From NCBI RefSeq assembly GCF_003075455.1, contig NZ_QDAE01000001.1:124001-188000 (forward strand): a stretch of DNA of 64,000 nt. Reading direction: 5' to 3'. The notes beneath the pieces were generated by a model that ran no database searches, had not been told where the DNA came from, and saw only the letters and a program-made list of their open reading frames with translations. The stretch comes from Arthrobacter sp. Bz4. GTDB taxonomy: Bacteria > Actinomycetota > Actinomycetes > Actinomycetales > Micrococcaceae. This document shows positions 500 to 56,313 of this stretch, piece by piece. Both the position numbers and the translations under genes were made by a program. Every line of letters starts with the position of its first letter. Within the stretch, counting starts at the first letter, position 1.

Positions 500-791
500 G
501 TCGATCCTCTCAGTCGTGATCGAGGTGCCCTACCCACGCACGCTGAAGCATCTGACCGCCAGGAATGGGGTCGACACCAACGGGGGATAAAACTTTCTCC
601 ATCGGTCCTGGCAGTAGCACCGGCCCCGAGGGGTGGTTGCTGCGGCTTCAACGAGCCAGGTCTCTCAGCCGCTCTGGATGGTTGTTCAGTCCGGGGGAGC
701 GATACCCTGCGGACTACGGCGATCTAATCGCATAATGATGGGGCAATCAAGAAAGTCCTGATCTGTACGACTTCCGACGCAACATTCAGCA
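500..791. other. Intergenic region with no gene seen
   Basis: The stretch upstream of the substrate-binding protein gene holds no ORF with coding character that I can support. It should contain the promoter of the leftward transporter gene, but no clear -35/-10 pair stands out. Confidence 0.5.
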
Positions 792-53685: not shown

Positions 53686-56184
53686 TTACTCCGGAACGAT
53701 GTTGACCAGCTTGGGAGCCCGCACGATGATAGTCCGGATTCCTCTGCCGTCGAGGGTTTTCTGGATCTGGGGACTGGCCAGGGCCAGTTCCCGCAGTGCG
53801 TCCTCGGTGATGTCCGGGGACACCTCCAGCCGGTCACGGACCTTGCCCTGCACCTGCACGACGGCGACCACTGTCTCCTGCACCAGCAACGACTCGTCGA
53901 CGGCAGGCCATCCCGCTGTCGCCACCGAGGCTGGGTGTCCCAGCCGGTTCCACAGGTCCTCCGCGGTGTAGGGGGCGAACAGGCTCAGGATGATCGCTAC
54001 CGCCTCCGTGGCTTCGCGGACAGCCGGATCGGCGCCCCCAACACCCGAGTCGATGGCCTTGCGGGTTGCGTTGACCAGTTCCATCACGCGGGCGATGACC
54101 ACGTTAAACTTGTTCCCCTGCAGCAGCGTGGCGCTGTCCGCGACGGTCCGGTGCGTGACCGACCGCAGCGCGCGGTCGCCGCCTGAGACGTCGACGTCGG
54201 GCACACTGGTCACGTCCTGACCGAGCCGCCAGGCACGGGCCAGGAACTTCGACGAACCCGACGGCGACACATCGGCCCAGTCGACGTCGTCCTCGGGTGG
54301 GGAGGCGAACACCATGGTCAGCCGGATGGCGTCAACGCCGAACTTGTCTAGCTGCTGGCTCAGGTCAACGCCGTTGCCGAGCGACTTGCTCATGGCCTTG
54401 CCGCCGTTGAGCACCTGCCCCTGGTTCAGGAGCGCCGAGAACGGTTCGGTGAACCCGATCAGGCCCAGGTCGAACAGCACCTTGGTGAAGAAGCGGCTGT
54501 ACAGCAGGTGCAGAATGGCATGCTCAACGCCGCCCACGTACTGTCCGACGGGCAGCCAGCGGTTCACTGCGTCGGTATCGAACGGCGCGTCGGTGGTGTC
54601 AGGGGATGCGAACCGCAGGAAGTACCAGGAGGAATCGACAAAGGTGTCCATCGTGTCGGTGTCCCGCTTGGCGGGCCCGGCGCACTGCGGGCAGGGCACA
54701 TTGACCCAGTCCTCGACGGCGGCGAGCGGCGAGGTCCCCTTCGGGGACAGGTCGCCGCCGCGCAGGTCTTCCGGCAGCGTGACGGGCAGCTGGTCGTCGG
54801 GGACCGGCACTTCGCCGCAGGTGGCGCAGTGGATGATCGGGATCGGGGTGCCCCAGAATCGCTGCCGGGACAACAACCAGTCGCGCAACCGGTAGTTGAC
54901 CGTGTGCTCGCCGGTGCCGTGCTCGGCGACCAGATCGATGGCGCGGGCAATGGCTTCGTCCTTGCCCAGCCCGTCCAGCTCACCGGAGTTCACCAGGGTG
55001 CCGTCGCCGGTGATGGCGATCCCCGACACCGCCGGATCCTCGGCACCGGTGTCCACAACCATTCGGACCGGCAGCTCGAAGGCGCGGGCGAAGTCTAGGT
55101 CGCGCTGGTCGTGGGCGGGAACGGCCATAATGGCGCCGGTGCCGTAGTCGGCCAGCACATAGTCGGCGGCCCAGACCGGCAGCTTCTCCCCATTCAGGGG
55201 GTTGATCGCCCAGCGGCCGGTAAACACGCCGGTCTTTTCGCGCTCGGTCGACTGCCGCTCGATCTCCGACAGGGACTTGATGCCCTCCCGGTATTCTTCC
55301 AGCTCGGCCCGGTGGGATTCGGTGACCAGGTCCAGGGCCAACGGGGCGTCTGCCGCCACCACGAAGAATGTGGCGCCGTGCAGCGTGTCCGGCCGGGTGG
55401 TGAACACGGGAACGCTCTGGGCCGGCTGCCCGTCGGCCTCTTCGATGACGAAGTCGACGTGGGCACCCTCGGAGCGACCAATCCAGTTGCGTTGCATGGC
55501 CAGGACCCGCTCGGGCCAGTGACCCCGCAGCTGGTCCATATCGTCCAGCAGACGATCCGCGTAGTCGGTGATCTTGAAGTACCACTGGTTGAGGCTCTTC
55601 TTGGTGACTGGGGTGCCGCAGCGCTCGCAGGCGCCGTTGACTACCTGCTCATTGGCCAGCACCGTCTGGTCTTTCGGGCACCAGTTGACCGGCGAGTTTT
55701 TCCGGTACGCCAGACCCTTTTCGAAGAAGCGCAGGAACAGCCACTGCGTCCACTGGTAGTACCCGGGGTCGGACGTGTGCAGCCGACGGGACCAGTCAAC
55801 GCTGATCGCGTAGCGGCGGAACGAGTTGGCCTGCGTCTCGATGTTGGTATAGGTCCATTCGGACGGGTGAGCGTTGCGCTGGATGGCCGCATTTTCGGCG
55901 GGCAGCCCGAACGAGTCCCAGCCGATGGGGTGCAGGACGTCGAACCCCTGCTGCCGGTAGTAGCGGGCGACGACGTCGCCCATCGCGAACGCCTCGGCGT
56001 GCCCCATGTGCAGGTCGCCTGAGGGGTACGGGAACATGTCCAGCACATACCGGCGCTCCCGTGAGCCGTCGTCGGCTGGCTTGAACGGCTGGAGCCGGTC
56101 CCACTCCGCGGGCCATCGGGCTTCGATGTCAGCGAAACTGTAGGTGTTCTCGTCCGGTTGCCCGGCGTCGGGTTGCGTGCTCAC
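53686..56184 (-). CDS. leuS: Leucyl-tRNA synthetase
   Basis: A class I synthetase that charges tRNA-Leu. The HIGH-type motif is [20 protein letters not shown] (about residues 50-69) and the KMSKS motif is [20 protein letters not shown]. The CP1 editing domain contains [21 protein letters not shown] zinc site, CATCGEVP and CPQC, is present. GTG at 56184 is chosen, giving 832 residues; the frame to 56226 runs into the leader terminator. A short leader ORF and hairpins lie upstream. Confidence 0.96.
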
Positions 56185-56224
56185 TGTTGTTGCCCTGTCC
56201 TCTTGATCAATTGCCCCTAGACAC

Positions 56225-56251
56225 ACAAAAGCCCCTCATCCAAGGAGGGGC
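56225..56251 (-). terminator. Leader terminator (attenuator) before leuS
   Basis: On the minus strand GCCCCTC and GAGGGGC (plus-strand 56231-56237 and 56245-56251) form a seven-pair GC-rich stem with a seven-base loop, followed by TTTTGTGTGT. It lies between the leuS promoter and the leuS start, which is the layout of a transcription attenuator. Confidence 0.75.
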
Positions 56252-56253
56252 AT

Positions 56254-56275
56254 GCCGCACGGTTGACTGTGCGGC
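56254..56275 (-). other. Second leader hairpin before leuS
   Basis: GCCGCAC and GTGCGGC form a seven-pair stem with an eight-base loop, just after the leader ORF stop and two bases before the terminator. It may act as the pause or anti-terminator-competing stem. Confidence 0.7.
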
Positions 56276-56301
56276 TAGCTAAGGAGTTGTACTACAGACA
56301 T
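56275..56301 (-). CDS. Predicted leuS leader peptide MSVVQLLS, leaderless
   Basis: An 8-codon ORF begins with ATG at 56301 and ends with TAG at 56275. Two adjacent leucine codons, CTC and CTT, precede the final serine. TAGAGT (plus-strand 56308-56313) is a -10 box six bases before the ATG, so the transcript would begin with this ATG. Two hairpins, the second a terminator, follow it. The set fits ribosome-mediated attenuation of leuS by leucyl-tRNA supply. Confidence 0.6.
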   Translation of the reverse strand: MSVVQLLS

Positions 56302-56307
56302 GCGACC

Positions 56308-56313
56308 ACTCTA
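56308..56313 (-). promoter_or_regulatory. -10 box of the leuS leader
   Basis: TAGAGT on the minus strand, matching TANNNT, lies six bases before the leader-peptide ATG. No good -35 box is seen at 16-18 bases. Confidence 0.5.

What the first reader, a model, noticed from the sequence alone, without database searches (positions are those of the whole stretch)
56225..56313. Candidate ribosome-mediated attenuator controlling leuS, with a leaderless Leu-Leu leader peptide
Seen directly: a -10 box TAGAGT six bases before an 8-codon ORF (MSVVQLLS) with adjacent CTC and CTT leucine codons, a stop, a seven-pair hairpin, then a seven-pair GC stem followed by TTTT, all before the leuS start. Established: ribosome-mediated attenuation controls leu, ilv and trp genes, where stalling at scarce-tRNA codons prevents the terminator. 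Inference: leucyl-tRNA shortage would raise leuS transcription here without a T-box. A clear anti-terminator pairing was not found by eye.
Basis: partly seen in the sequence, partly recalled or inferred. Interest (0 to 1): 0.75.

Follow-up and report, generated by a model that had tools for sequence, protein, structure and literature searches.

The report
Leucine-sensing switch before leuS
A tiny reading frame with rare leucine codons, a hairpin and a transcription stop signal sit just before the gene for leucine-tRNA loading, and the same layout recurs across many actinobacteria, with isoleucine codons before an isoleucine gene, so it is very probably a ribosome-driven leucine sensor of an apparently unusual build.

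Summary
On the minus strand, a -10 box (TAGAGT) lies 6 nt before a uORF, MSVVQLLS*. A 7-bp hairpin A, a 2-nt linker, a 7-bp terminator with TTTT, and leuS follow. The layout is kept in 34 of 34 readable same-genus leaders. A covariance model from 47 leaders matches 183 of 394 class genomes. In 75 of 79 distinct model matches a start 6-7 nt after TANNNT is in frame with the regulatory codons; the other frames give 1 of 79 each. Regulatory codons follow the downstream gene: leuS 97/97 Leu, cimA 14/14 Ile, ilvB 10/10 Leu/Val/Ile. This strongly supports ribosome-mediated attenuation. It is a known kind: leuS attenuators were predicted in Streptomyces in 2005, and a leaderless S. lividans leuS leader peptide is identical to that of two of our loci. 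New here: the wide spread, the near-fixed geometry (stem 5 nt after the last regulatory codon, terminator usually 1-2 nt after the stem), and no convincing antiterminator pairing in 132 leaders. I propose that intact hairpin A sterically prevents the terminator base from closing. That step is inference and untested.

The parts
56308..56313 (-). -10 box TAGAGT, 6 nt before the uORF ATG
   Evidence: TANNNT 6-7 nt before the start in 34 of 34 same-genus leaders (with L022 read as) and in 75 of 79 distinct matches of A2
56275..56301 (-). leaderless uORF ATG TCT GTA GTA CAA CTC CTT AGC TAG (MSVVQLLS*)
   Evidence: conserved uORF in relatives; leaderless by -10 spacing only
56281..56286 (-). regulatory leucine codons CTC CTT; CTT is 58 of 880 Leu codons in 13 chosen window ORFs and 0 of 71 in leuS
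   Evidence: (last codon CTT in 92 of 97 leuS rows, all 97 Leu)
56254..56275 (-). hairpin A (sensor stem GCCGCAC/GTGCGGC, 8-nt loop); starts 5 nt after the last Leu codon
56252..56253 (-). 2-nt linker between hairpin A and the terminator
   Evidence: leuS rows: 1 nt in 86 of 97, 2 nt in 11 of 97
56231..56251 (-). intrinsic terminator stem-loop GCCCCTC/GAGGGGC
56216..56230 (-). U-tract TTTT and following tail GTGTGTCTAGG
56193..56204 (-). probable ribosome-binding region of leuS (AAGAGGACAGGG)
   Evidence: read from the sequence, position; not tested
53686..56184 (-). leuS, leucine--tRNA ligase, start GTG
   Evidence: TIGR00396, 963.7 bits; start chosen by conservation of GTGAG in 13 relatives

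Best explanation
Transcription starts at or next to the A of the uORF ATG, so a ribosome loads on the bare 5' end (inferred from the -10 spacing). With enough leucyl-tRNA the ribosome passes CTC CTT, reaches the stop codon and opens the base of hairpin A. With a Leu codon in the A site the base of hairpin A lies near the mRNA entry of the ribosome, so a ribosome starved of leucyl-tRNA leaves hairpin A whole or mostly whole. Hairpin A ends 1-2 nt before the terminator stem. I propose that such a rigid duplex next to the terminator base stops the last base pairs of the terminator from closing inside RNA polymerase, so transcription runs on into leuS; opening hairpin A frees the flank and lets the terminator work. 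Leucine shortage therefore raises leuS. Shown by comparison: parts, frame, codon identity, spacing, both stems, lack of a clear antiterminator pairing. Inferred: leaderless start, ribosome position, direction of control, and the steric step.
For: Frame: in-frame start after TANNNT in 75 of 79 distinct matches against 1 of 79 in each other frame; 95 of 97 against 1 and 2 for leuS rows. Codons follow the gene: leuS 97/97 Leu, leuA 2/2 Leu, cimA 14/14 Ile (ATT), ilvB 10/10 Leu/Val/Ile (genes called by short motifs, examples checked against NCBIfam: one cimA, one ilvB, two leuA). The model was trained on leuS leaders only, so finding Ile codons before cimA runs against its bias. The stop codon sits at two main places (35 at -2, 36 at +7 from the stem, 4 elsewhere) while codon-to-stem distance stays. 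Linker 1 nt in 71 and 2 nt in 9 of 80 matches; 121 of 126 leader-type terminators have a hairpin of -12 kcal/mol or better ending within 2 nt, against 11 of 91 other terminators. Covariation of both stems. Terminator arms do not pair convincingly with upstream sequence in 132 leaders, and stem extensions are weaker than shuffles on average. S. lividans leuL2 is reported leaderless with a terminator and has the same peptide, MRAVRLLLSEPR, as L167 and L168. A ribosome just upstream of a terminator blocks it in E. coli, and closure of the final 2-3 bp is stated to be essential (PMC4824070 section 10).
Against: No expression data for this organism. No direct evidence for the steric step was found. 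Related cases argue against codon sensing: codon substitutions before ilvBNC in S. coelicolor had no effect, and mutated Leu codons before leuA did not change regulation (both as cited in PMC1262725); one Val-to-Glu change in a Corynebacterium ilvB leader did not change regulation (PMC10272879), and that paper proposes a base-paired antiterminator. PMC4824070 gives about 10 nt protected downstream of the A site; by that figure a ribosome at the last Leu codon would cover about 5 nt of the stem, so 'hairpin A whole' is borderline. One of six pairing comparisons (uORF against the terminator 3' arm) is slightly stronger than shuffles (-7.78 against -7.35; 9 of 132 at p<=0.05). The model finds no match in 211 of 394 class genomes (strict filters) nor in the named Micrococcaceae loci L036 (Glutamicibacter), L038 (Yaniella) and L041 (Kocuria). 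Spacing and last-codon counts come from matches to a model trained on such leaders, which favours them.
Confidence: 0.55

Rival explanations
1. Classical attenuation: a base-paired antiterminator that overlaps a terminator arm forms when the ribosome stalls, as in trp leaders.
For: Seliverstov and colleagues predict antiterminator hairpins in the Streptomyces leuS leaders (PMC1262725; text and legend seen, figure not). In this window hairpin A can gain 2 basal pairs that take 2 nt of the terminator while the transcript is 52-61 nt long (-15.4 to -16.2 kcal/mol, against -14.4 at 49 nt). In one search the uORF against the terminator 3' arm is slightly stronger than shuffles (-7.78 against -7.35).
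Against: In 132 leaders five of six comparisons are weaker than shuffles on average; for the whole leader against the terminator 5' arm it is -4.34 against -6.23 with 0 of 132 at p<=0.05, and no comparison exceeds 9 of 132. Extension of hairpin A is not better than shuffles (-2.15 against -2.56, n 79). Hairpin A and terminator coexist in the minimum-energy fold of this leader.
Confidence: 0.22
2. Hairpin A only pauses RNA polymerase to synchronise it with the ribosome, and leucine control acts through an unknown further step.
For: The stem base lies about 10-16 nt upstream of the terminator loop (sequence), a spacing like that recalled for pause hairpins.
Against: Hairpin A lies downstream of the Leu codons, not over them, and a pause alone does not give read-through; the tight linker is not needed for a pause.
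Confidence: 0.13
3. A constitutive partial terminator with a uORF that has no sensing role.
For: No expression data exist here; codon changes in ilvB and leuA leaders were reported to have no effect.
Against: Regulatory codons match the amino acid of the downstream gene in leuS, cimA, ilvB and leuA leaders, and frame and codon-to-stem distance are kept while the stop codon moves.
Confidence: 0.08

Closest known systems
leuS attenuators of Streptomyces coelicolor and S. avermitilis (predicted, PMC1262725) and S. lividans leuL2 (PMC8079986)
   Same: Same gene, leaderless leucine leader peptide (MRAVRLLLSEPR is identical to that of L167/L168), hairpin and terminator.
   Different: Here the stop codon ends at the stem (TAG) instead of lying inside it, and the uORF has two Leu; the 2005 paper names an antiterminator hairpin, for which I find no convincing pairing with the terminator.
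trp-type ribosome-mediated attenuation
   Same: Leader peptide with codons for the controlled amino acid, hairpins, intrinsic terminator.
   Different: No convincing overlapping antiterminator; uORF apparently leaderless; the sensor stem lies wholly downstream of the codons.
ilvB-II motif of Corynebacterium (PMC10272879)
   Same: uORF with branched-chain codons, stem P1, then terminator stem P2; reporter high in minimal and low in rich medium (tested in B. subtilis).
   Different: That uORF spans most of P1, and an antiterminator between the P2 3' side and the P1 loop is proposed.
LEU element before leuA (PMC1262725)
   Same: Leucine codon run in a uORF before a leucine gene of Actinobacteria.
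   Different: A pseudoknot is reported there; I did not test for one here, and the leuS leaders have a terminator.
Polycysteine leaderless uORFs of mycobacteria (recalled; not read here)
   Same: Leaderless uORF as amino-acid sensor.
   Different: Recalled as not working through an intrinsic terminator.

Membership tests
ribosome-mediated transcription attenuators | short leader ORF with codons for the amino acid of the controlled gene | tested here: met
ribosome-mediated transcription attenuators | intrinsic terminator between leader ORF and gene | tested here: met
   (sequence only)
ribosome-mediated transcription attenuators | competing antiterminator that shares bases with the terminator (classical trp form) | tested here: not met
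   by energy of pairings against shuffles
ribosome-mediated transcription attenuators | read-through rises when the charged tRNA is scarce | not testable with these tools
   needs an experiment
Streptomyces-type leuS leader | leucine leader peptide, hairpin and terminator before leuS, alignable to Streptomyces | tested here: met
T-box | match to Rfam T-box models | tested here: not met
   no T-box hit in the window at gathering score nor in L002 at E<=0.5
any Rfam family | match of the leader to a curated RNA family | tested here: not met
   window; 9 leader-bearing loci; one weak hit, not on a leader
LEU element | pseudoknot, with the Leu codon run pairing with the Shine-Dalgarno box | not tested
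   only pairings with the terminator arms and stem extensions were tested

The most novel reading that the evidence does not exclude
An attenuator class of Actinomycetota that has no base-paired antiterminator: a codon-gated hairpin placed 1-2 nt before an intrinsic terminator blocks its closure by steric hindrance, and the sensor codons have been exchanged between genes (Leu for leuS and leuA, Ile for cimA, Leu/Val/Ile for ilvB) while the geometry stayed nearly fixed.
Probability: 0.43. Interest if true: 0.82.

Novelty: new variant of a known kind. Interest (0 to 1): 0.62.

Why it matters
It would give a large group of high-GC bacteria a common leucine/isoleucine sensing device for which I found no Rfam family, with a natural codon exchange that argues for sensing before any experiment. 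It also makes a clear physical question testable: can a hairpin beside a terminator switch it off without sharing a base with it? If so, such switches could be built by spacing alone, and leaders thought to lack an antiterminator would need a second look.

Tried and rejected
Antiterminator by duplex search between upstream leader and terminator arms: in 34 genus leaders lowest p 0.09; in 132 leaders, where one of six comparisons is slightly stronger than shuffles. Extension of hairpin A into the terminator base, and extension of the terminator by the hairpin A 3' arm with the tail: weaker than shuffles on average (30 and 16 of 79 better than their own shuffle mean). Pairing of the Leu codons with the terminator 3' arm (7 pairs in this leader, p 0.43): not beyond shuffles, and it would give the wrong sign of control. 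Pairing of the tail with the bases before hairpin A: looked at by eye, not consistent; the tail has CCGG in 60 of 134 leaders against 4 of 34 other terminators and stays unexplained. A first control for neighbouring hairpins (28 of 40 leaders, 3 of 11 other terminators at -12) was too small and was replaced, where leader terminators were picked by sequence pattern and the 11 background cases may include unrecognised leaders. A regex for leaders in named contigs failed. Weak model hits L221 and L239 (E 0.004 and 0.005) look false (no leucine run); they stand among the 12 unassigned rows and were dropped, as was L164 (N in its sequence); one search dropped L164. Second matches L223 at 250 and L185 at 1676 were dropped.

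Selection: one search was given 84 loci, 80 matched (none in L036, L037, L038, L041). Of the 80 named contigs, 22 were given; the others showed no leader by the pattern, so the counts are shares of model matches, not of all leuS genes. The window's taxon was not established; the best named contigs are Micrococcaceae.

Full report
Observation. The -10 box TAGAGT ends six bases before the ATG of an eight-codon uORF, MSVVQLLS. Hairpin A follows directly; its first paired base is the last base of the stop codon. A 2-nt linker, a seven-pair terminator stem and TTTT follow. The gene is leuS (TIGR00396, 963.7 bits). The mechanical ORF begins at GTG 56226, inside the terminator tail; GTG 56184 is the likelier start because GTGAG stands there in the 13 relatives printed in gene orientation.

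Conservation in the genus. Thirty-five same-genus loci, the window's own included, were fetched. In 34 the whole leader could be read; L024 is cut by a contig end but keeps part of hairpin A and the terminator. All 34 have a TANNNT box 6-7 nt before the uORF start (L022 as read), a uORF that ends Leu-Leu-x-TAG, hairpin A and the terminator. For the order, upstream regions of 7 of the 22 genomes outside the genus were fetched; read by eye, five have the layout and two, L117 and L120, do not.

Structure. In an alignment of 47 leaders, the two stems are paired in 97.3% of cells, 9 of 15 pairs have changes on both sides (shuffled mean 2.7, 0 of 500 shuffles as high), and slid versions do much worse. 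The structure was derived from the same alignment, which favours it over the slid versions.

Spread. A model from these 47 (R1) matches 183 of 394 genomes of the class at E<=0.001, in 74 of 137 genera (strict filters), and 29 of 296 genomes drawn from the phylum; 15 of those 29 lie outside the class, with E 1.1e-8 at best. Some genomes may also be behind training sequences (L154 and L074 have the same leader). The named Micrococcaceae loci L036 (Glutamicibacter), L038 (Yaniella) and L041 (Kocuria) gave no match; by eye L036 has a hairpin, a terminator and a uORF with one Leu. No Rfam family matches the window leader at gathering score, nor the leaders in nine loci at E<=0.5.

Reading frame. 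Of 84 loci given, 80 matched, 79 of them distinct. In 75 of 79 a start codon (55 ATG, 20 GTG) lies in the frame of the regulatory codon, 6 nt (57) or 7 nt (18) after TANNNT; in each other frame 1 of 79 does. The stop lies at -2 (35) or +7 (36) from the stem start, with four elsewhere, while the codons stay 5 nt from the stem. The loci were chosen partly because they showed a leader, so these are shares of matches.

Codon exchange. Over both sets of matches, 135 distinct rows were sorted by the gene downstream: leuS 97, cimA 14, ilvB 10, leuA 2, unassigned 12. The last regulatory codon is Leu in 97 of 97 leuS rows (CTT 92, CTC 4, CTG 1), Ile ATT in 14 of 14 cimA rows, Leu, Val or Ile in 10 of 10 ilvB rows, and Leu in 2 of 2 leuA rows. 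The model favours CTT for leuS, since it was trained on it; it does not favour Ile. Gene calls rest on short motifs; one cimA, one ilvB and two leuA examples passed NCBIfam cut-offs. The TANNNT test is met in only 1 of 14 cimA, 2 of 10 ilvB and 1 of 2 leuA rows; several cimA leaders have a CANNNT box instead, seen by eye. The window's own genome has such an ilvB leader, MQFESVVVLLTKRVA. CTT is 58 of 880 Leu codons in 13 chosen window ORFs and 0 of 71 in leuS, so the leader uses a codon that leuS avoids; sensitivity of weakly decoded codons is a recalled general idea, not tested.

Geometry. The stem starts 5 nt after the last regulatory codon. With that codon in the A site the stem base is about 12 nt from the first base of the P site, near the mRNA entry (recalled geometry). 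A ribosome at the stop codon would open about 8 nt (TAG type) or more (TGA type). A published figure of about 10 nt protected beyond the A site (PMC4824070) would put about 5 nt of the stem under a ribosome at the last Leu codon, so this point is borderline; at the earlier Leu codon it is less so. The terminator stem begins 1 nt (71 of 80) or 2 nt (9 of 80) after hairpin A; in the larger set leuS has 1 nt in 86 and 2 nt in 11 of 97, cimA 1 nt in 14 of 14, leuA 1 nt in 2 of 2, and ilvB 1 nt in 7 and 2, 3 and 4 nt in one each of 10. Among other terminators in the fetched sequences, 11 of 91 have a hairpin of -12 kcal/mol or better ending within 2 nt, against 121 of 126 leader-type terminators.

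Antiterminator. Energies of pairing between either terminator arm and upstream sequence do not reach p 0.05 in any of 34 genus leaders. In 132 leaders five of six comparisons are weaker than shuffles on average (whole leader against the 5' arm: -4.34 against -6.23 kcal/mol, 0 of 132 at p<=0.05); the sixth, uORF against the 3' arm, is slightly stronger (-7.78 against -7.35), with 9 of 132 at p<=0.05 where about 7 are expected. Extensions of hairpin A or of the terminator are not better than shuffles. The folds of hairpin A and terminator are compatible in this leader. A classical switch by shared bases is therefore unlikely, though not excluded.

Mechanism. Hairpin A whole should mean leucine shortage, and leuS should then rise, so whole hairpin A must oppose termination without pairing with the terminator. 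The short linker suggests a steric cause: a paper on E. coli states that closure of the final 2-3 bp of a terminator is essential, shows that a ribosome a few bases upstream represses a terminator, and advises against GC-rich inserts upstream, whose structure could inhibit terminator folding (PMC4824070; abstract and sections 10 and 15 read). A stable duplex in the same place could do the same. This is inference.

Literature. PMC1262725 (passages and section 4 read) predicts leuS attenuators in S. avermitilis and S. coelicolor. PMC8079986 (passages) reports leaderless leuL2, MRAVRLLLSEPR, with a terminator before leuS in S. lividans; L167 and L168 have the same peptide. PMC10272879 (passages and section 12) describes a related ilvB leader with reporter data. 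Searches for leuS or similar attenuators in other actinobacteria and for cimA leaders, and for hairpins that block a terminator sterically, gave listings in which I saw no paper announcing either; I opened only four papers, and only open-licence papers are held. Against the reading: codon substitutions before ilvBNC of S. coelicolor and Leu-codon mutations before leuA are said to have no effect, and so is one codon change in PMC10272879.

Verdict. Observation confirmed; attenuation by leucine codons well supported (about 0.9 in my judgement); steric switch plausible (about 0.43). It belongs to a known kind, the actinobacterial leuS attenuator, with a structural feature that I did not find described.

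Noticed in passing
596-684 (-): SAM riboswitch (RF00162, 60.6 bits).
   Followed up: no
L159:1501-1611 (G000:C24:2864-2974): The window genome's ilvB has a leader of the same layout, uORF MQFESVVVLLTKRVA.
   Followed up: partly
L161-L163, L210-L218, L222, L236-L238, L180: Leaders of the same layout before citramalate synthase (cimA) with isoleucine codons ending in ATT (14 rows classed cimA, L180 and L238 unassigned there); the listing showed no description.
   Followed up: partly
L227:201-285, L229:201-282: Leaders with Leu runs before 2-isopropylmalate synthase genes in genomes outside the class.
   Followed up: no
L164, L165 (G261); G466:C1:3856942 and 3860004: G261 has two leuS genes of different LeuRS type, each with its own leader; G466 has two leader matches 3 kb apart, one before leuS (L220), the other unassigned.
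   Followed up: no
56216-56226 (-): Conserved tail after the U-tract ((Y)RTGYCCGG in many relatives; CTAG here); CCGG in 60 of 134 leaders against 4 of 34 other terminators. Function unknown.
   Followed up: partly
56226 (-): The longest mechanical ORF for leuS starts at a GTG inside the terminator tail; an automatic annotation could place the start there wrongly.
   Followed up: yes
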